Source: Alphaproteobacteria bacterium | GTDB taxonomy: Bacteria > Pseudomonadota > Alphaproteobacteria > Rhizobiales > JAKIUO01 | DNA length: 45,711 nt | Assembly (NCBI GenBank): GCA_024280895.1 | Contig: JAJRPI010000067.1 | Span: 1-45,711 of the forward strand | Direction: 5' to 3' | Shown: one piece after another, positions 22,840-45,711 of the stretch | Layout: every line of letters starts with the position of its first letter | Position numbering within the stretch: position 1 is the first letter of the stretch | Notes under the pieces: generated by a model | What the model was told of the DNA's origin: nothing | Seen by the model: the letters and a program-made list of their open reading frames with translations, nothing else | Database searches by the model: none | Program-made: the position numbers and the translations under genes

Positions 22840-24354
22840 ATGTCGCGTAAAAATTATGCCCAAAATCGATTGGCAAGACTGAAAGAACATCTTCAGCATG
22901 AGAATTCGGATCTCATGGAGGCAGTGGACAGCTATAGCGAGCTGGACCTGATTGCTTGGCGCATGGGTCTTTTGCCACGCGGGATCTCTTACGCCAACCA
23001 TATTTCCTGGTGGCCGCTGGTGTCGATCCTTGGAACATTTTCTGCCGGAAAATCGAGTTTCATTAATACCTGGTTGGGCGAGGATGTGCAGCGTTCTGGT
23101 AATCAGGCGGTGGATGATCGCTTTACGGTGCTGTCTTATGGTCCTGACAAAAAGATTAAAACCTTGCCCGGACAAGCGCTTGATAGCGATCCGCGTTTTC
23201 CCTTTTACCAGATAAGTAAGGATATTGAGGGCGTCTCACCTGGAGACGGCAACAGGATCGACAAGTTTTTACAGATGAAAGTCGTGCCATCAGAGGTGTT
23301 GCGTGGCAAGCTGGTCATTGACAGCCCGGGCTTTGATGCCGATGAGCAGCGCAAGTCAACCTTGCGCCTGACCAAGCATATTGTGCGCTTAAGTGATCTC
23401 GTGCTGGTATTTTTTGATGCCCGCCATCCTGAAAGCGGCGCCATGCAAGACACGCTCAAACATCTTGTGGAAGAGCATGTGGACAGTATGGATAGCGAGA
23501 AGTTCATTTACATTCTCAATCAGATTGATACCTCGGCCGCTGACAATAATCTGGAAGATATCGTTGCCTCATGGCGTTCATCGCTGGCCCAAAAGGGACT
23601 GTCAGCAGGCAAGTTTTACGTTTATTTTAATGATGAGATCGCGGTTCCTGTTGAAGACAAGGATGTCTGGAGCAGCTATAAACGCAAGCGCGATCAAGAT
23701 CACAAGCTGATCATGGGGCATCTTGAATCCCTAAACACCGTGCGCACCTATCGCATTGTCGGCAATCTTAAACTGCTGGCCAATGACATCGAAGGCGATG
23801 TCATCCCACGGCTGAAAACAGCGCTGGGAAAATGGCGCAATAGCGTACGTATCACGGATTTGGTTTTGCTGACGCTCATTGGGCTTATTGCTCTTGTCGT
23901 CTGGTTTAAAACCGGTTTTGCTCTGGCTACATGGAAACTTGTGGCTCTGATCTGCGGCACGCTCGCGGCGTTTATCTTTGGCCATTATCTGGCGCGGCGC
24001 GGCTTTGCTTCCCTTTATAACAAGGGCCTTGGCGACGAGGATGTTGGAGATCTGGGAGCTGCCTTTGACAAAAACACCAGATGGTTCAGATCCGTCTGGT
24101 TGCGCCGCAATCCCGTTGGCTGGAGCACTGGCGTACGGCGCAAGCTGGACCGTATTCGCAACAAAACCGAGCAGATGATCGAGCATCTCAACAGCAAAAA
24201 TTCTGATCCGTCGGGACAGCTGTCAAACGTGCTGAGCTCTGCATCCAAAGCCAAATCAGCGGATGCAAAGCCCTTGGCCGCTATGCCAATGGCCTCTGCA
24301 CATGCAGGGGATAAAATCGCGGAAAACGGCAGCGGCGAACGCAAGATCTCGTAA
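22840..24354 (+). CDS. Dynamin-like GTPase, membrane-anchored
   Basis: The protein has 504 residues. The GTPase domain has G1 GTFSAGKSS (residues 65-73), a candidate G2 Thr in DRFTVLS, G3 DSPG (161-164) and G4 NQID (227-230, a variant of NKxD). After a helical region come two hydrophobic segments (about 339-356 and 364-384), then a basic helical region and a low-complexity Ala/Ser/Lys tail. Bacterial dynamin-like proteins remodel membranes or help tolerate membrane damage, including during phage attack. The two-helix hairpin here would insert into the inner membrane. It converges with the caspase-like gene. TAAGGGA provides a ribosome-binding site. Confidence 0.85.
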   Translation: MSRKNYAQNRLARLKEHLQHENSDLMEAVDSYSELDLIAWRMGLLPRGISYANHISWWPLVSILGTFSAGKSSFINTWLGEDVQRSGNQAVDDRFTVLSYGPDKKIKTLPGQALDSDPRFPFYQISKDIEGVSPGDGNRIDKFLQMKVVPSEVLRGKLVIDSPGFDADEQRKSTLRLTKHIVRLSDLVLVFFDARHPESGAMQDTLKHLVEEHVDSMDSEKFIYILNQIDTSAADNNLEDIVASWRSSLAQKGLSAGKFYVYFNDEIAVPVEDKDVWSSYKRKRDQDHKLIMGHLESLNTVRTYRIVGNLKLLANDIEGDVIPRLKTALGKWRNSVRITDLVLLTLIGLIALVVWFKTGFALATWKLVALICGTLAAFIFGHYLARRGFASLYNKGLGDEDVGDLGAAFDKNTRWFRSVWLRRNPVGWSTGVRRKLDRIRNKTEQMIEHLNSKNSDPSGQLSNVLSSASKAKSADAKPLAAMPMASAHAGDKIAENGSGERKIS

Positions 24355-24380
24355 TTGATACAAGAGCGGGTCATGAATGG

Positions 24381-24401
24381 TGAGGGGCACAACACCCCTC
24401 A
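24381..24401. terminator. Hairpin between convergent GTPase and caspase genes
   Basis: TGAGGGG pairs with CCCCTCA around a 7-base loop, 27 bases after the GTPase stop and 30 bases before the caspase-gene stop on the other strand. It has no strong T run on either side, so its role as a bidirectional end is tentative. Confidence 0.45.
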
Positions 24402-24430
24402 CTCCCATAACATCCTTACACCATTTGTCA

Positions 24431-25792
24431 TTATTGCGCCTTGCAGCGTTTTTTCTGTTCCCATAGCTGGATCAGTTTGACGTTCAAGTGTTCCACCGGC
24501 TTTTTCAAAATATTCGAGCTGGTAGTATTGCAACTTGAATTGTTGAAATATTGAATGCCCAATGGTGTCACAAAACAATAACCGTTGCGGTCATATATTT
24601 CATTGCGTGCCCGCCACAGCTCCAGGCAACTCAGGGGTTTGATCTCTCGCGGCAGGATCGGCTTTTGCGAGCTAGTTCTAAAGATCGGTTTATTGTCCCT
24701 GACACCCACTTTGATGAGCGGCATTGTCAACGCGCTGGCTGGCTGCTGGCTGCTGGTTTTGGGGACGCTTGTTCCCGCAAAACTGGCGACATTGAGAAAA
24801 CCGGCATGCATGAGCGCTGGTTGCTTGTTTAATTCAAGCGCGCTAAATTTCTGAATTTTTAGTTTCGCAGAAGATACGAACTTTCCCTCTGGATAAACCT
24901 GCAAGTAGATTTTGAAGGCGGCGGCATTGGTATTGTTCTTGATGCTGCTCCAGAACAGCTCCTCATCGGTTTTCTTCTTTTCGTGAAAAAAGAATTTTCC
25001 GAACAGGCGATCGATATAAAAGGGAGCCTGGCTCTGGTTCTCCACTTTGCTTTCTACGGTCGTCAAGACACTCAACTGGATGTTTTTGGCAAGTTCAGCA
25101 AGTTCGAGGTCGGGATTGTCCAGCTGTTCCAGCAGACTGCGGGTGAACACAGAGTTTTTGTTGGTATCATCTTCGCCAAGACTGTCGAAGGCTTCTTGTC
25201 CCTCATCGGCAGAATACATGATGAAGGTGCCGCTTCGGGCTGTGCGTATGGGCACCAGACCCCGCGTCAGACCGCCGATGGCTCTGGTTTTTTTACTGGC
25301 TTTAAACGGGTTGTTGCGACAGGCATCAAGGATCATGATGGTGGTCTGGGCGCCGCGACCCCGGATCATTTCGAGGATCTTTTGTACGTCGAACCCTTCA
25401 AAGCGCACATATTCTTCTTCGATGCCACCCGTTGCTGGAATATCGGTGGCCAGCAATAGGTTGGAGCGATCGATTTGTACACCGTGGCCTGCATAAAAGA
25501 ACACCACCTTGTCGCCAATGGAGATCCGGCTGGCGAGGTCCTGGATCTTTTGCACCATTTGTCGGCGCGTGAGATTAGTCCCTTGAATGACTTCAAAGCC
25601 GAGCGAGGTGAGCTTTTTATCAAGCGCCGTTGCGTCATTGACCGCTTTTTGCAGGCTGGGGACTTCCGCGTAAATATCATTTCCCAGCACCAGCGCAAGG
25701 CGCTTTTCGGTTAAGGCGGATGAAATGAAACCGCTTGTGCCCAGCGTCAGACAAAGCGTTGACGCGACAATAATCTTCTTAAAAATTTTCAA
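24431..25792 (-). CDS. Secreted caspase-like (peptidase C14) protein with YARHG-like tail
   Basis: The protein has 453 residues. A signal peptide (about 1-28) is followed by a caspase p20-type domain (30-260) with the catalytic dyad His103 in FYAGHG and Cys158 in LDACRNNPF. The middle is a low-complexity linker. The C-terminus (about 395-430) has SCLELWRARNEIYDRNGYCF, which resembles the YARHG domain found in extracytoplasmic proteins. Metacaspase-like enzymes cleave after Arg or Lys or act in stress and death responses; here it would work in the periplasm or outside. The start is TTG with GGGAG seven bases upstream, since no in-frame ATG fits the signal peptide. Confidence 0.88.
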   Translation of the reverse strand: MKIFKKIIVASTLCLTLGTSGFISSALTEKRLALVLGNDIYAEVPSLQKAVNDATALDKKLTSLGFEVIQGTNLTRRQMVQKIQDLASRISIGDKVVFFYAGHGVQIDRSNLLLATDIPATGGIEEEYVRFEGFDVQKILEMIRGRGAQTTIMILDACRNNPFKASKKTRAIGGLTRGLVPIRTARSGTFIMYSADEGQEAFDSLGEDDTNKNSVFTRSLLEQLDNPDLELAELAKNIQLSVLTTVESKVENQSQAPFYIDRLFGKFFFHEKKKTDEELFWSSIKNNTNAAAFKIYLQVYPEGKFVSSAKLKIQKFSALELNKQPALMHAGFLNVASFAGTSVPKTSSQQPASALTMPLIKVGVRDNKPIFRTSSQKPILPREIKPLSCLELWRARNEIYDRNGYCFVTPLGIQYFNNSSCNTTSSNILKKPVEHLNVKLIQLWEQKKRCKAQ

Positions 25793-27173: not shown

Positions 27174-27758
27174 CTATTTGGCCGGGCATTTGTGCTGGGC
27201 TTTGCGTGTATCGCATGCGGAAACCCGACGTAGATATTTCGTCCATTTGACAATGCTGCTTTTTGCAGGCTTTTTCTTCCAGGCCTTTTGCACGACATAA
27301 AAACTGTCTTTGCCACGAATGGTTTTGAACCAGGTATATTCGGGTTTTTTTGTTTTGGTATTTAAAGGGCAGATCAGAAAAAAGAACGAATAGGCATAGC
27401 CATTTTCAAATCCTTTTTTGATCAGGATGGCACGGCTGCCTTTACATGCTTTGGTGTGTGTTGTGCGCATGAGATGAAAGAAATTGCTCGGCGACAGCTT
27501 CTTGTCATTGAGAAAAACTTGCACCGTGACCATTTCTGACCAGTTTTTCAATGACTGGGATTGCGGGATCATCTCCGTCATCTTCATATTCTTGACGCGG
27601 GTTCGATAGGCAATCTTGTATCCTTGCGGCTGGCCGACCAGCAGGTTCTCGTTTTTAAGGGCCGGCGCTGCCGATGCAAAAGAATTGGGCAAAAAGCCAA
27701 AGCTCAGCAACAGGAAGGCGCCTTTGATGGATAAGATATTTGCGCTTAAATGGTGCAT
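27174..27758 (-). CDS. Secreted protein of unknown function
   Basis: This 194-residue protein starts at the ATG that gives a compact signal peptide (about 1-29, ending SFASA); an ATG 11 codons upstream is also in frame. The mature part contains YKIAYRTRVKNMKMTEMIP and a Trp-x-Glu-Met-Val-Thr-Val-Gln segment that I have seen in a widespread uncharacterised exported family. Four Cys residues could form disulfides. No function can be assigned. It lies downstream of the DUF4261 gene on the same strand with a 63-base gap. Confidence 0.7.
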   Translation of the reverse strand: MHHLSANILSIKGAFLLLSFGFLPNSFASAAPALKNENLLVGQPQGYKIAYRTRVKNMKMTEMIPQSQSLKNWSEMVTVQVFLNDKKLSPSNFFHLMRTTHTKACKGSRAILIKKGFENGYAYSFFFLICPLNTKTKKPEYTWFKTIRGKDSFYVVQKAWKKKPAKSSIVKWTKYLRRVSACDTRKAQHKCPAK

Positions 27759-27820
27759 GATACGGGCCTCGCCAAAGAATTTTGATTGCATATATCATTC
27801 GTGCAAATAGGTGTGCCGCG

Positions 27821-28799: not shown

Positions 28800-29057
28800 C
28801 TATTCGGCGGCGGCAGCCGAGCGGGATAATATGTCATGCAGGAATTCGGGGGCGATATCAGCTCCATTGGGCCAGACGAGGGTGCCCGCTTTTTTATCCA
28901 GCGTGAATTTGGCAAAGGTGCTGGGCTCTTCGAGGGATTCAAAAATGGGGCCTTTTAAATAAACCTTTAGATCAAGCTCTCCCTCAAGCCCATCATCGAA
29001 CAAAAGCCAGACGCGGTGCCCCGAAAGATAGCGGGCTTTTTGGACATGAGGAAACAT
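28800..29057 (-). CDS. DUF2442-domain protein
   Basis: This 85-residue protein has the DUF2442 fold pattern: VWLLFDDGLEGELDLKVYL, then FAKFTLDKKAGTLVWPNGADIAPEFLHD. It is the second gene of a two-gene unit; its ATG is 3 bases after the stop of the DUF4160 gene, so translation is coupled. This pairing is very common in bacteria and has the layout of a toxin-antitoxin-like or mobile two-gene cassette, but its biochemical role is unknown. The 133 bases between it and the DUF4261 gene show no further feature. Confidence 0.9.
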   Translation of the reverse strand: MFPHVQKARYLSGHRVWLLFDDGLEGELDLKVYLKGPIFESLEEPSTFAKFTLDKKAGTLVWPNGADIAPEFLHDILSRSAAAAE

Positions 29058-29060
29058 AGG

Positions 29061-29318
29061 CTACTCCAAAGGCTCTATTTTTTCGAGTGGAAGTCCTTGT
29101 TCGGCGAGGCGCCAGACTTCACGCAGTTTATCTTGATGCAGTTCGTGCCATTCAAGAACAGATTTTAGCGCTCGACGCGGAAATCGTCCAGTGACAACAC
29201 CGCTGTCAATCTCGACCTTGATTTCATATTCGCCATATATAGCATGAAAATGTGGTGGAGGGTGATCAAGAAAATAGATGTATATTGAAATGCCAAGGAA
29301 TTGGCTGATTTCCGGCAT
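29061..29318 (-). CDS. DUF4160-domain protein
   Basis: This 85-residue protein has the hallmark DUF4160 sequence GISIYIYFLDHPPPHFHAIYG, where the HxPPHFH stretch is a potential metal or catalytic site. It is encoded directly before its usual partner DUF2442 with a 3-base gap. The product may act with or be controlled by the partner. AAAGGTGAAC gives a good ribosome-binding site. The pair is 110 bases downstream of the Ntn-hydrolase-like gene on the same strand, so one transcript is possible. Confidence 0.9.
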   Translation of the reverse strand: MPEISQFLGISIYIYFLDHPPPHFHAIYGEYEIKVEIDSGVVTGRFPRRALKSVLEWHELHQDKLREVWRLAEQGLPLEKIEPLE

Positions 29319-29428
29319 TTTGTGCGTTCACCTTTGTTTCTTTATAGTCGGGCTGGGTTTGCGAAGCCTGTTTTAACCATTCATAGGAAAAGTGAAGCTG
29401 TAGGATGATTGTAAGGGTTGCATGAACG

Positions 29429-30283
29429 TCATGGTCGGATTTTAAGATTCTCTGCTCGTTTTTGAAGCTCTTTTCTGACGCAATCAACCTGTTCCGACCA
29501 TGAAAGATACTTCATATTATTTGAAAGTTTTTCTGGTATTTTGTCTTTAAAAGGTGAGTACACATATGCAATCTTAGCCTGAGGAAGGATCGCGCCAACG
29601 ACAGGTGTTCCGACTTTATTCAGCACAACTATGGAATATTCATAATGTCCCTGACCAGCGTCAGCAGGTGCATCAGGGTGAGCTACCGTCTTTCCTGTAA
29701 TTAATCTTGGAAATTGCCATGTCATTGTTCCGCTGTTTGAAAGGTAAGTGTAGCCCTTATGCGTACCGAGGACACAGACAGGAAATCCCCCAATGGGATC
29801 GGTGAAACTTCGGGATTTGGATGTAAGAAAATCAATAAATTGATCTCTAAGCCGACTATCCCAAAGGTTCGATGGAATATTATCTTTTCGCGCAGCTCCG
29901 ATCATTTCAGAAAATTTATCATCACATCCAATTGAGCATACATCTTCACATTCCAACATTCCACCGTTGCGGATTAGATAAAGTTTTGCTCCATTTACAT
30001 GGGATGCCAAAAAGAAATCGATATCATATTTTAGCGATTTATTTTTCAAAAACTGCTGTAATTCTGCGATGCCATTCTGGGCAAACACGTCTCTGGCTTT
30101 TATTACTGAATCATTTGCGCGATCAGCAGCTCCAGAAAATGCAACGGCTACTTTGCTATTCAACACCGCCACCTTTAGCCTTCCGGGAATAACCCCAGAT
30201 TTGACGGCAGCTTCATCAGTCACCATTGTGTCAGACAGAATAAGTATTCTGTCATCTTTTTTTTGAGCGATCACAATCGTCAT
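29429..30283 (-). CDS. Orphan proteasome/HslV-fold Ntn-hydrolase-like protein
   Basis: The 284-residue product begins MTIVIAQ. Removing Met exposes Thr1, as in proteasome beta subunits and HslV. Counting from that Thr, Asp17 sits in LSDTMVT, and Lys36 in GRLKVAV aligns with Lys33 after a three-residue insertion. The strand VAVAFSGAADRA matches the Ser-Gly-x-Ala-Ala-Asp segment that forms the oxyanion region in the family. A later stretch (FFLASHVNGAKLYLIRNG, then CSIGCDD) matches the next beta sheet. The rest is unlike HslV, Anbu or known beta subunits, and the protein is longer by about 100 residues. No HslU or other unfoldase is nearby. A longer reading from 30307 would bury Thr1. The fold assignment is by motif reading only. 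Confidence 0.65.
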   Translation of the reverse strand: MTIVIAQKKDDRILILSDTMVTDEAAVKSGVIPGRLKVAVLNSKVAVAFSGAADRANDSVIKARDVFAQNGIAELQQFLKNKSLKYDIDFFLASHVNGAKLYLIRNGGMLECEDVCSIGCDDKFSEMIGAARKDNIPSNLWDSRLRDQFIDFLTSKSRSFTDPIGGFPVCVLGTHKGYTYLSNSGTMTWQFPRLITGKTVAHPDAPADAGQGHYEYSIVVLNKVGTPVVGAILPQAKIAYVYSPFKDKIPEKLSNNMKYLSWSEQVDCVRKELQKRAENLKIRP

Positions 30284-30415
30284 TGCGGGGTTTCCCTGTT
30301 TCCACACTGAGAATTGACGTCAGAAACAGCTAAATATCACATTTTTACAACTGCTTGAGCGGCGAGGTCGGTAGCCCTTTGCCTGTGTTTTTATTGGCGA
30401 GGCTGCGGCATATGG

Positions 30416-30435
30416 ATCCCCGCCTGCGCGGGGAT
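30416..30435. repeat. Short GC-rich palindrome (ATCCCCGC/GCGGGGAT)
   Basis: Eight-base arms flank a four-base loop, followed by GACAG and five Ts. This ATCCCCGC..GCGGGGATGAC motif is one of the intergenic palindromes seen across many bacterial genomes. It lies in the 309-base space between the Ntn-hydrolase-like gene and thiC, which otherwise contains only the partial repeat at 30533 and no gene. Confidence 0.6.
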
Positions 30436-30532
30436 GACAGTTTTTGTATGATTGCTAGGACGGGGTTGTTGATCCCGCCCCCCTACAAGTCAGAACCACT
30501 TTTTCCACATGAATTCACGTCGAAGGTGAGGT

Positions 30533-30590
30533 GCAGGGGATCATCCCCTGCTGCCAGCTGCATAGGCTGCCCCGCGCGGCGAGCGCATTT
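30533..30590. repeat. Partial/degenerate copy of the palindromic element
   Basis: GCAGGGGAT/ATCCCCTGC (30533-30551) and the following 22 bases match the element at 42896-43029 (21 of 22 in the GCTGCCAGCTGCATA block). The terminal repeat is decayed (GCGGCGAGCGCATT instead of ACCGGCGAGGTCATT). It lies just beyond the thiC stop. Confidence 0.55.
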
Positions 30591-34134: not shown

Positions 34135-34180
34135 TTTGATGCGCACTTGAACGACTAAATTACTCTTGATTGGGACGAAT

Positions 34181-36154
34181 ATGAATATGACACAAAAGGG
34201 GCACAGCACGACCCCCGTAGAAGACGCCACAAAGGGCGTGCCGGTTGGTCGTATTGTGTCTGTGACGGGTTCACAGGCTATTGCTCTGATCTTCCATAAT
34301 TCTAATGGAACACAAGAAAGCAAAGAACTGCAACCTGAAATGGGGACCCTTTTGAAGGTCGACACGCCGATCTCAGTGGTTCTTTGTCTGGTCTCTGCAT
34401 TAAGCGCTCCGGCCCCGACCGAGGTTGATAGCGAACAAGAGTTGTGGATCGCCGAGATTGAGCTGGTGGGCGAGTTGTTCAAAAATGAGCAAGGTGTGCC
34501 AGATAAATTTCGCCGCGGTGTTATGGCCTATCCAGCGCTGGGTGATCTGATTTACAAATGTTCCCATAAGGAGCTGGAAAAAGCCTATTCATGGGATAAT
34601 GAGGAAACCATCCGGATCGGTAAAATCCATCAAGATCAAAGCATTGATGCGGTGATACGGGTGAATGAAATGCTCGGCAAGCATTTCGCTGTGCTGGGTT
34701 CCACCGGTACCGGAAAATCTTGCTCAACAGCGCTTTTGCTACGCCAGATCCTCGATAAAAACCCAGAGGGCCATGTCGTATTGATTGACCCCCATAATGA
34801 ATATACAAAATGCTTTGGCAATATGGCCGAGGTCATTTCGGTCAATGAGCTGCAATTGCCGTTCTGGTTTTTGACCTTTGAAGAAATTGTCGAAGTGCTG
34901 GTGGGAGATCGCAAGGGTCGATCCAAGGAAATCGAAATTCTTGCTGACCTCATTCCCATGGCCAAGGCCCGTTATGCCAATGGCAAGCGTAGCGGGCGCA
35001 TAGCGATGCGCACCAGTGACAATGCCAATTTCTCGGTGGATGCGCCATTGCCTTATCGGATCTCCGATATAAATGATCTGCTCAATGAGCATATGGGTCG
35101 CCTCGATATGAAAACCTCGATTGGCCCCTACAAGGTATTGAAAGCCCGTATTGAAGCTGTGACATCAGATGTCCGCTACTCCTTCATGTTTGGGGCAACT
35201 ACCGTGCAGGATCAAATGGCGGCCATCCTTGGACGCTTGTTCCGTATTCCGGTGAATGGCCGACCGATTACGATCCTCGAAATGACAGGCTTGCCGTCTG
35301 AAGTCATCAATGTGGTGGTGTCAGTGATCGCTCGCATGGCCTTTGATTTCGCTCTATGGAGTGGTGGCAAGGTGCCGATCACCATCGTTTGCGAAGAAGC
35401 TCATCGCTATATTCCAGCTGATAGCTCCATGGGCTTTGAACCGACCAAACGCTCGCTCGCCAAAATTGCCAAGGAAGGCCGCAAATACGGGGTATCACTT
35501 GGGGTTATTTCACAGCGCCCCTCGGAAATTGATTCGACCATTTTGTCCCAGTGCAACACCTTGTTTGTGATGCGCATCGCCAACGACCTGGACCAAAAGA
35601 TCGTCTTGTCGGCGATCTCGGATGCCGCCAGTTCCCTGCTCGAATTTCTGCCGTCCCTTGGCATGGGGGAATGTATTGTTTTTGGAGATGGTGTGACGCT
35701 GCCGGTGCGCATGCGTTTTGATCGTTTGGATGATAAATATTTGCCGCGTAGTTCGACCGCCAAGTTTACAGAAAGCTGGCGCGAATCCATCGATGACAAT
35801 GAGGATTTCCTTGAGAATGTCGTCAAGCGTTGGCGGGCAGCAGGCACACCGACTGCTAATACGACCGGGGACGCGAAAATCGCTGAGGCAGTTTTGATGC
35901 CAAGCGATGCGGTCTCCAATGCCCCCGTTATGACCCCGGCTGCGCAAGATAATCCGGCACCAGAAATACAGGCTCCAGTCCCGACCCTGGAGGTGCCGCA
36001 AGCAGCCGAACCTGAAGCGAGCGCTCCTGATATTCCAGACCTTGAGGAAGGCGCGCCAGAAATAGAAATGAGCAAGGGTCTCATCGCCTCTGCGATCGAT
36101 GAAAAAGAGCGCATAAGAGAAGCGCTGCGATCCAAAAGTCGTTTCTTTAAATAG
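34181..36154 (+). CDS. HerA-like (DUF87) ATPase
   Basis: This 657-residue FtsK-HerA superfamily ATPase has an N-terminal HAS-barrel-like region (about 15-110), Walker A GSTGTGKS (173-180), IDPHNEY typical of HerA, Walker B IVCEEAHRY (402-410) and an arginine-finger-type SQRPSEID. The C-terminal 130 residues are Pro/Ala/Glu-rich and disordered. HerA proteins form hexameric DNA pumps; archaeal HerA works with the nuclease NurA, and bacterial forms take part in repair or defence. No nuclease gene is next to it here. The ATG at 34181 is chosen; a second ATG lies two codons later. Confidence 0.88.
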   Translation: MNMTQKGHSTTPVEDATKGVPVGRIVSVTGSQAIALIFHNSNGTQESKELQPEMGTLLKVDTPISVVLCLVSALSAPAPTEVDSEQELWIAEIELVGELFKNEQGVPDKFRRGVMAYPALGDLIYKCSHKELEKAYSWDNEETIRIGKIHQDQSIDAVIRVNEMLGKHFAVLGSTGTGKSCSTALLLRQILDKNPEGHVVLIDPHNEYTKCFGNMAEVISVNELQLPFWFLTFEEIVEVLVGDRKGRSKEIEILADLIPMAKARYANGKRSGRIAMRTSDNANFSVDAPLPYRISDINDLLNEHMGRLDMKTSIGPYKVLKARIEAVTSDVRYSFMFGATTVQDQMAAILGRLFRIPVNGRPITILEMTGLPSEVINVVVSVIARMAFDFALWSGGKVPITIVCEEAHRYIPADSSMGFEPTKRSLAKIAKEGRKYGVSLGVISQRPSEIDSTILSQCNTLFVMRIANDLDQKIVLSAISDAASSLLEFLPSLGMGECIVFGDGVTLPVRMRFDRLDDKYLPRSSTAKFTESWRESIDDNEDFLENVVKRWRAAGTPTANTTGDAKIAEAVLMPSDAVSNAPVMTPAAQDNPAPEIQAPVPTLEVPQAAEPEASAPDIPDLEEGAPEIEMSKGLIASAIDEKERIREALRSKSRFFK

Positions 36155-44446: not shown

Positions 44447-45711
44447 ATGAGCGGCCATACGCACATCGTGAATGCGCGGTTTTTGCCGTGGTTGACAATA
44501 CCCTTCCGATCGAACAGGGCTTTGTTTTTTTCTGTATATCTGTTTTCTTCGATTTCGGGCTGGGAGCGGGCTTTTGCAGACGCTGTGGTGACATGTGTTA
44601 CCGGAGCAGGAAACCTGTCTATCCAGTGTGGTGATGGGGCGGATGCCAGTGGAGATGGGGCTTCGGCTCTGGGTACAAATGCTACGGCGGCACATAATAA
44701 CGCGACAGCCATTGGTATTGACGCCACGACCACAAGAGACGATCAGATTATTTTTGGCACGCCGTCCAGTACCCATACCTTTTCGGGGCTGACCGGTGGG
44801 GCTAGTAACGCTGTCCAGGGAGCTGTTCAAGGCTTGGTCACAACCGATATAGATGGAAATATTGCCTCAGATGGTGGCGCACTACAAACACAAGTAGATG
44901 GCAATACGGCCACCAATGCCACGCAGCAAACGGCGATAGATGGGAATGCCACAGCAGCGAGTGCCAATGCGGCCACCAACGCGACGCAGCAAACAACAAT
45001 AGACGCGAACGCCACAGCAGCGAGTACCAATGCGGCCACCAACGCCACGCAGCAAACAGCAATAGATGCCAATGCCACGGCTGGGAGTGTCAATGCGGCC
45101 ACCAACGCGACGCAGCAAACAGCGATAGATGCGAATGCCACCGCAGCGAGTGCCAATACGGCCACCAACACCACGCAGCAAACAGCGATAGACGCGACAG
45201 CCACCGCTGCGAGCGCTAATGCGGCCACCAATGTCACGCAGCAAACGGCAATAGATGCGACCGCCACGGCTGCGAGCACCAATGCGGCCACCAATGCCAC
45301 ACAGCAGACAGCGATAGATGTCAATGCCACCGCAGCGAGTGCCAATACGGCCACCAATGCTACGCAGCAAACCGCGATAGATGCGAATGCCACAGCTGCG
45401 AGCGCCAATGCGGCCACCAACGCTACACAGCAAACAGCAATAGATGCGAATGCCACAGCAGCGAGCGCCAATGCGGCAACGAACGCCACACAGCAAACCG
45501 CAATAGATGCGAATGCCACAGCGGCGAGCGCCAATGCGGCCACGAACGCTACCCAGCAGACAGCAATAGATGGGAATGCAGCAACGAACGCTACGCAGCA
45601 AACCGCAATAGATGCGAATGCCACGGCTGCGAGCGCCAATACGGCCACGAACGCTACACAGCAGACAGCAATAGATGGGAATGCAGCAACGAACGCTACG
45701 CAGCAAACAGC
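44447..45711 (+). CDS. YadA-like trimeric autotransporter adhesin, N-terminal part (runs off window)
   Basis: 421 codons of an open frame reach the right edge without a stop. A long signal peptide (about 1-44, ending AFA) is followed by YadA-type head motifs with SALGTNATA and ATAIGIDA, then DDQIIFGTPSSTHTFSGLTGG, which is typical of alphaproteobacterial trimeric adhesins. From about residue 160 the protein is a stalk of 21-residue repeats with the consensus QQTAIDANATAASANAATNA. The membrane anchor would be beyond the window. AAAAGGGAAAC precedes the ATG. Confidence 0.85.
   Translation, partial: MSGHTHIVNARFLPWLTIPFRSNRALFFSVYLFSSISGWERAFADAVVTCVTGAGNLSIQCGDGADASGDGASALGTNATAAHNNATAIGIDATTTRDDQIIFGTPSSTHTFSGLTGGASNAVQGAVQGLVTTDIDGNIASDGGALQTQVDGNTATNATQQTAIDGNATAASANAATNATQQTTIDANATAASTNAATNATQQTAIDANATAGSVNAATNATQQTAIDANATAASANTATNTTQQTAIDATATAASANAATNVTQQTAIDATATAASTNAATNATQQTAIDVNATAASANTATNATQQTAIDANATAASANAATNATQQTAIDANATAASANAATNATQQTAIDANATAASANAATNATQQTAIDGNAATNATQQTAIDANATAASANTATNATQQTAIDGNAATNATQQT
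44924..45711 (+). repeat. 63-bp tandem repeats in the adhesin gene
   Basis: Ten consecutive 63-bp units run from 44924 to 45553, followed by units of 42, 63 and 42 bp and the start of a fourteenth. The 42-bp units lack seven codons (the ATAASAN part). All units keep frame. The array continues past the window. Confidence 0.92.

What the first reader, a model, noticed from the sequence alone, without database searches (positions are those of the whole stretch)
29429..30283. Orphan proteasome-fold Ntn hydrolase with the Thr1/Asp17/Lys33 triad but no unfoldase
With Met removed the protein starts with Thr, has Asp exactly at position 17 and a Lys at the position equivalent to 33, and contains an SGAADR strand like that of proteasome beta subunits and HslV. 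It is longer than known bacterial members, has no ATPase partner and lies in an accessory cluster. Established: beta-type peptidases need these residues. Inference: this is an undescribed self-processing or assembly-independent Ntn enzyme.
Basis: partly seen in the sequence, partly recalled or inferred. Interest (0 to 1): 0.75.

Follow-up and report, generated by a model that had tools for sequence, protein, structure and literature searches.

The report
Rare horizontally spread proteasome-like hydrolase gene
The gene encodes a distant bacterial relative of proteasome subunits that keeps the catalytic threonine, aspartate and lysine, seems to have been gained as a single accessory gene, and belongs to a broad class already described in 2021, although what it does is unknown.

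Summary
The minus-strand ORF 29429-30283 (284 aa) starts Met-Thr, with Asp at 17 and Lys at 36 (Thr1 numbering). Four relatives over the full length were found (one broken by a stop). Across the five, only 14 columns are invariant, among them Thr1, Asp17, the Lys and a Gly behind it. A low-confidence AlphaFold model (best at residues 41-110) matches proteasome entries in all 50 PDB rows listed (best Z 12.5, residues 1-156). So it is very probably a proteasome-fold Ntn hydrolase, though PF00227 does not detect it.

"Orphan, no ATPase" is usual for a class described in 2021: 22 uncharacterised proteasome-homologue subfamilies (PMC8665760). Whether this is one of them could not be tested.

New here: the gene is rare and absent from four congeners, whose slot beside thiC holds other genes or nothing. 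In 4 of 5 members its G+C lies 9-15 points below the surroundings, and no shared neighbour was seen.

Most likely mechanism: Met removal exposes Thr1, and the protein acts as an ATP-independent threonine hydrolase, probably a peptidase. Activity, oligomer and substrate are untested.

The parts
29429..30283 (-). gene of the proteasome-like protein, 284 aa, ATG start
   Evidence: Met-Thr at the same point in all five members
30278..30280 (-). codon of Thr1 (Met numbering T2), predicted nucleophile
   Evidence: sequence; invariant in 5 of 5
30230..30232 (-). codon of Asp17 (D18), predicted triad member
   Evidence: sequence; invariant in 5 of 5
30173..30175 (-). codon of Lys36 (K37), equivalent of proteasome Lys33
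   Evidence: sequence; invariant in 5 of 5
30131..30133 (-). codon of the invariant Gly50 (G51); equivalent of proteasome Gly47 or of a Gly three residues later
   Evidence: invariant in 5 of 5; register ambiguous
29816..30283 (-). part of the protein (residues 1-156) whose model matches proteasome subunits
   Evidence: pLDDT of residues 1-40 is only 49-56 per block of ten
29432..29815 (-). C-terminal part (residues 157-284), probably the last core strands plus an extension; fold not resolved
   Evidence: pLDDT below 50 for residues 153-267 and 272-284
29322..30590 (.). variable slot between the DUF4160 gene and thiC; edges depend on the congener compared (29324-30529 against G004, 29322-30590 against G003)
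28800..29318 (-). neighbouring DUF4160 + DUF2442 pair (DhiTA-type toxin-antitoxin candidate); context, not a part of the thing described
   Evidence: the domain pair is listed as dhiTA in PMC8198452 (one table passage)

Best explanation
The gene encodes a divergent proteasome-fold Ntn hydrolase that is gained and lost as a single accessory gene. Mechanism (inferred): translation starts Met-Thr, the cell's methionine aminopeptidase removes Met, and the free Thr1 becomes the nucleophile, with Lys36 (= Lys33) and Asp17 assisting. No propeptide and no dedicated ATPase are needed. The protein most likely hydrolyses short peptides, unfolded segments or one specific small substrate without ATP, alone or as a homo-oligomer. 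Shown here: the ORF, the conserved residues in five members, a low-confidence model resembling proteasome subunits, the patchy occurrence and the variable slot. Not shown: activity, oligomer, substrate.
For: Triad residues are among only 14 invariant columns of five sequences 20-25% identical to P0001. The model has the order strands, strands, two helices, four strands, two helices, as in proteasome subunits (recalled). Foldseek gave 979 PDB matches at E<=0.001 (50 listed, all proteasome entries); all 50 VIA-align rows are proteasome entries, best Z 12.5, rmsd 2.3, 107 residues. In 5 of those 50 rows the first aligned pair is model residue 2 (the Thr) with chain residue 1. hhalign of the family against nine Anbu-type proteins scores 29.8, 0 of 250 column shuffles as high; against five HslV 22.8, 1 of 250 as high. 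Absent from 4 of 4 congeners held, whose slot carries other genes or nothing. G+C is 41.3% in the gene against 50.8% in the window, and lower than the surroundings in 4 of 5 members.
Against: No Pfam, PADLOC or PHROGs match, and only two insignificant NCBIfam hits; PF00227 finds only the genome's own HslV. The model rests on two sequences: mean pLDDT 50.2, pTM 0.51, and the stretch with Thr1, Asp17 and Lys36 has pLDDT only 49-56. The model of a second member failed (pLDDT 31.1). The hhalign match to Anbu-type proteins covers residues 1-20 only, that to HslV 67 columns. A family-profile search of PDB sequences gave two insignificant hits: an unrelated inclusion membrane protein ranks first (E 0.72), a proteasome beta subunit second (E 1.1). 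If the invariant Gly corresponds to proteasome Gly50, the Gly47 position is Ala or Ser in all five. One member carries an in-frame stop and one locus is only a C-terminal scrap, so the gene is not strongly kept.
Confidence: 0.66

Rival explanations
1. Same fold and nucleophile, but not a peptidase: an amidohydrolase or a protein ligase/transpeptidase (as connectase is), acting on one specific substrate.
For: Single-gene distribution with no protease partner; PMC8665760 describes connectase, a monomeric specific protein ligase, in the same superfamily; the C-terminal part is longer than in HslV.
Against: The model shows no insertion between strands 3 and 4 like that of connectase; no substrate-like neighbour gene was recognised.
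Confidence: 0.17
2. A toxin or defence effector: the gene sits in a slot where congeners carry toxin-antitoxin-like genes, and its threonine protease activity would be triggered by phage or stress.
For: The slot lies beside a DUF4160/DUF2442 pair; congener G003 has a zeta-toxin-like kinase gene there; L003 lies next to a Fic/Doc gene and L016 next to a GmrSD-type gene; L006 lies about 1.6 kb from an integrase gene.
Against: No PADLOC match; no shared partner or antitoxin seen in five contexts; L017 lies beside lepA; no relative in the phage or plasmid collections.
Confidence: 0.1
3. A proteasome-fold protein without activity, serving as a structural or binding subunit, like proteasome alpha subunits.
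For: Possible loss of Gly47; several of the top structural matches are alpha subunits (chain identities partly recalled).
Against: Thr1, Asp17 and Lys are invariant at low overall identity, which a dead subunit would not need.
Confidence: 0.04
4. Not a proteasome-type protein; the residue pattern is coincidence.
For: No curated family hits it; the model is of low confidence; the first PDB profile hit is unrelated.
Against: Agreement of homologue conservation, model and profile comparison.
Confidence: 0.03

Closest known systems
Anbu (bacterial ancestral beta subunit)
   Same: Met-Thr start, then SDT at 16-18 in several; size 241-282 aa in the nine read here; the higher hhalign score of the two families tried, 0 of 250 shuffles as high
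   Different: The profile match covers residues 1-20 only; the neighbours scanned are not the transglutaminase, ATP-grasp and Alpha-E genes that PMC5666114 reports for Anbu. G154 and G042 carry an Anbu-type gene apart from this one (label from recall, supported by plasmid relatives annotated proteasome-type protease or peptidase, two of the seven fetched beside a transglutaminase gene)
HslV (ClpQ)
   Same: Thr1/Asp17/Lys pattern; hhalign in register from residue 2 to 71
   Different: HslV of this genome is another gene, beside an hslU-type ORF; about 175 aa against 284
20S proteasome beta subunit
   Same: The model of residues 1-156 matches proteasome subunits; one insignificant sequence hit to a beta subunit (E 1.1)
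   Different: PF00227 finds no other proteasome subunit in the genome; no propeptide; C-terminal part unresolved
The 22 uncharacterised prokaryotic proteasome homologues of Fuchs, Alva and Lupas 2021 (PMC8665760)
   Same: Divergent, often few representatives, no AAA+ interactor identified, some with extra C-terminal domains, no propeptide
   Different: Their sequences were not at hand. Whether this family is one of them, or one of the small clusters left out by the survey's minimum of ten representatives, is open

Membership tests
Proteasome-like Ntn hydrolases (family T1 and homologues) | Thr or Ser as residue 1 after Met or propeptide removal | tested here: met
   5 of 5 members; removal of Met itself not tested
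Proteasome-like Ntn hydrolases (family T1 and homologues) | Asp17 | tested here: met
   5 of 5 aligned (count 17 in four, 19 in L016)
Proteasome-like Ntn hydrolases (family T1 and homologues) | Lys33 equivalent | tested here: met
   5 of 5 aligned; count 36 in the window protein
Proteasome-like Ntn hydrolases (family T1 and homologues) | Gly47 of the oxyanion hole | tested here: inconclusive
   A Gly is invariant (G51, Met numbering) but may be Gly50; the other candidate column is A/A/S/S/S
Proteasome-like Ntn hydrolases (family T1 and homologues) | four-layer sandwich, residues 1-156 | tested here: met
   Z up to 12.5 to proteasome entries, but one model of low confidence (mean pLDDT 50.2) and a failed model of a second member
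Proteasome-like Ntn hydrolases (family T1 and homologues) | last core strands and complete sandwich | tested here: inconclusive
   pLDDT below 50 for residues 153-267
Pfam PF00227 (Proteasome) | score above the gathering cut-off | tested here: not met
   0 families at E<=1; the whole-genome search finds only HslV
HslV | adjacent hslU and HslV-type length | tested here: not met
   window ORFs read by eye show no HslU; the genome's HslV with an hslU-type ORF is on contig C89
Anbu | operon with transglutaminase, Alpha-E and ATP-grasp genes | tested here: not met
   none assigned by Pfam to the eight neighbours scanned; other window ORFs read by eye only
The 22 subfamilies of PMC8665760 | clustering with the published sequences of one subfamily | not testable with these tools
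Threonine peptidases | Thr1-dependent peptide hydrolysis | not testable with these tools
   needs purified protein

The most novel reading that the evidence does not exclude
An unnamed subfamily of proteasome-fold enzymes that travels as a single-gene cargo through the same variable slots as toxin-antitoxin modules, works without any ATPase, and acts as a conditional threonine protease or protein ligase in stress or phage response, possibly with an oxyanion hole lacking Gly47.
Probability: 0.1. Interest if true: 0.6.

Novelty: new member of a known kind. Interest (0 to 1): 0.36.

Why it matters
It adds an intact, testable member to a group of bacterial proteasome relatives without known function. 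A 284-residue protein that should need neither propeptide nor ATPase is a convenient subject for asking what ATP-independent proteasome-like enzymes do. The 2021 survey reported phage transfer for two subfamilies (PPH, AAH) and otherwise no genomic context that suggested a function; the exchange of this gene in a slot shared with toxin-antitoxin-like genes is such a context, though a weak one.

Tried and rejected
Searches that found nothing: P0001 in genome contigs and viral contigs, plasmids and phages; alignments A2, A4 and A5 in viral contigs; L006, L016 and L017 proteins in plasmids and phages. These searches reach only fairly close relatives.

HerA (34166-36154) as a hidden ATPase partner: rejected, because it is present in all four congeners while the gene is in none. 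The DUF4160/DUF2442 pair as an obligate partner: rejected, because G004 has the pair without the gene and I saw no such pair by eye in the contexts of the other members.

Start at GTG 30307 (eight extra residues): not favoured. In L006, L016 and L017 the ATG before Thr is the first possible start after a stop codon, and L003 aligns there.

G757 hit (L030, E 0.022): dropped as chance; I saw no Met-Thr ORF of this type at the locus among ORFs of 150 aa or more. L004/L029 (G154) is a C-terminal scrap beside an ORF that looks like a transposase (by eye) and was left out of the five-member counts. The model of L006 failed and was not used. Alignment A7 mixed HslV and Anbu-type sequences, one of them started too late, and was replaced by separate alignments in scripts 52 and 98.

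Placement in a named subfamily of PMC8665760 was wanted but not possible. Paper searches in which I found no paper on this family. Of PMC8665760 I read the abstract, Methods, Results and Discussion and passages, not the Introduction. Of PMC5666114, PMC13022661 (a reference-list entry only) and PMC8198452 I saw passages only.

Full report
What is there. The ORF lies on the minus strand, ATG at 30283 and stop at 29429, 284 residues. Removing the start Met leaves Thr1, with Asp at 17 and Lys at 36. Pfam (E<=1), PADLOC (E<=1), PHROGs (E<=5) and a PDB sequence search (E<=10) give no hit for it; NCBIfam gives two insignificant ones, E 0.077 and 0.16. PF00227 finds one protein in this genome, an HslV beside an hslU-type ORF on another contig (hslU read by eye).

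Relatives. With P0001 as query, 3 of 297 genomes of the order match: its own, G042 (28% identity over residues 1-254, with one in-frame TAG) and G154 (a C-terminal scrap). In 385 genomes of the class and 398 of the phylum only its own matches. In the genus it is in 1 of 5 genomes, its own (the other four are 88-99% complete). A two-row alignment (A2) found L006 in an alphaproteobacterial metagenome assembly. A three-row profile (A4) then matched 3 of 142 genomes of that order: the source genome itself, L016 and L017. It matched only the centre genome among 289 of the class and its own centre in a one-genome family. Profile A1 matched only its centre among 299. Profile A5 matched 2 of 175 at E<=0.05: the scrap in G154 and a hit that I dropped as chance. 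These samples overlap and cannot be added. No relative was found in the viral, phage or plasmid collections.

Conservation. In the five members, 20-25% identical to P0001, 14 columns are invariant, among them Met1, Thr2, Asp18, Lys37 and Gly51 (Met numbering); two alignments gave the same 14. All five have Met-Thr at the same point. The Asp of L016 is displaced by a two-residue insertion. One reservation concerns Gly47. Counted from the Lys, the invariant Gly is 14 residues on; in this genome's HslV the two candidate Gly residues lie 12 and 15 residues after Lys33 (sequence), so the register is open. If the invariant Gly is the later one, position 47 is Ala, Ala, Ser, Ser, Ser.

Fold. AlphaFold2 on an alignment of just P0001 and L006 gave mean pLDDT 50.2 and pTM 0.51. 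Residues 41-110 average 68-90 per block of ten, but residues 1-40, which hold the triad, only 49-56. The order strand-strand-(short helix)-strand-strand-helix-helix-four strands-helix-helix is that of proteasome subunits (recalled). Foldseek returned 979 PDB matches at E<=0.001; the 50 listed are all proteasome entries, with TM-scores of only 0.32-0.35 by query length. All 50 rows shown by VIA-align are proteasome entries too, best Z 12.5 at rmsd 2.3 over 107 residues, spanning residues 1-156. VIA only re-aligns what Foldseek ranked first, so this is one line of evidence, not two. In 5 of the 50 rows the first aligned pair is model residue 2 with chain residue 1 (beta chains by recall); in other rows it differs. 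The C-terminal part is unresolved. By eye, GGFPVCVL at 165-172 resembles the Gly-Gly strand of beta subunits. The second model, of L006, failed (pLDDT 31.1).

Profile comparison. hhalign of the five-member family against nine Anbu-type sequences scores 29.8, and 0 of 250 column shuffles reach it, but the alignment covers residues 1-20 only. Against five HslV it scores 22.8 over 67 columns, and 1 of 250 reach it. With fewer sequences the counts were 0 of 200 (two Anbu-type, 23.3; reversed control 18.5) and 3 of 200 (four HslV, 18.9; reversed control 15.8). A search of PDB sequences with the family profile gave two hits below E 10: an unrelated inclusion membrane protein (E 0.72) and a proteasome beta subunit (E 1.1). 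Each line is weak alone; together with conservation and model they make a proteasome-type Ntn fold very likely.

Surroundings. Downstream in the same orientation lie DUF4160 and DUF2442 genes, a domain pair listed as the type II toxin-antitoxin dhiTA in PMC8198452 (one table passage). Upstream is thiC. In four congeners the gene is absent. Against G003 the stretch 29322-30590 is replaced by about 1.5 kb with a zeta-toxin-like kinase gene and a 274-aa ORF, and most of the DUF4160/DUF2442 pair is missing too. Against G004 the stretch 29324-30529 is replaced by about 0.5 kb with a 147-aa ORF next to the DUF4160/DUF2442 pair. In G001 about 80 bases separate the flanking alignments. In G002 about 0.2 kb separate thiC from the homologue of the gene at 27177-27791; the genes between were not matched. 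G+C is 41.3% in the gene and 50.8% in the window. For the other members, gene against surroundings: L003 55.4 against 64.5, L006 36.0 against 50.6, L017 31.2 against 41.8; L016 39.9 against 39.5 on a short contig. Neighbours differ each time: a Fic/Doc gene (L003), a tyrosine integrase about 1.6 kb away (L006), a GmrSD-type gene and an unassigned ORF (L016), lepA (L017). Hence, by inference, a single-gene, horizontally moving accessory gene with no fixed partner.

Literature. PMC8665760 (Methods, Results and Discussion read) reports 22 new prokaryotic proteasome-homologue subfamilies, predicted to share the fold and the Thr/Ser1-Asp17-Lys33 triad. It identified no co-occurring AAA+ interactors, found propeptides only in proteasome beta and HslV, extra C-terminal domains in several, and required ten representatives per cluster. 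That makes the kind known. Whether this family is one of the 22 could not be tested.

Mechanism. Shown: residues, distribution, low-confidence fold. Inferred: methionine aminopeptidase exposes Thr1 (its preference for small second residues is established knowledge), Thr1 attacks an amide with Lys36 and Asp17 helping, and the substrate is reached without an unfoldase. I rate an ATP-independent threonine hydrolase at 0.66, with ligase/amidase, toxin/defence and inactive-subunit readings as rivals.

Noticed in passing
window 28800-30590 and loci L023, L024, L026: The stretch next to thiC is a variable slot: congeners have other small genes there (zeta-toxin-like kinase, a 147-aa ORF, the DUF4160/DUF2442 pair) or nothing.
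   Followed up: partly
window 44902-45708: Long tandem repeat array, period 63 (about 11 copies) and 105, open in two minus-strand frames; perhaps a repetitive protein that runs off the window end.
   Followed up: no
window 22840-25792: A dynamin-like GTPase (weak LeoA match) next to a convergent caspase-domain protein with a YARHG domain; both are matched in congeners G001, G002 and G003 (the G004 stretch does not reach them).
   Followed up: partly
window 30414-30438: GC-rich palindromic element between the gene and thiC, also flagged as terminator-like. No second copy in the window with up to 3 mismatches; among 38 loci its 18-base core occurs only in the two that cover this same place.
   Followed up: partly
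L003 1399-2262 and L004: The G042 relative has an in-frame TAG after residue 54, beside a Fic/Doc gene; G154 keeps only a C-terminal scrap, so the family also decays.
   Followed up: partly
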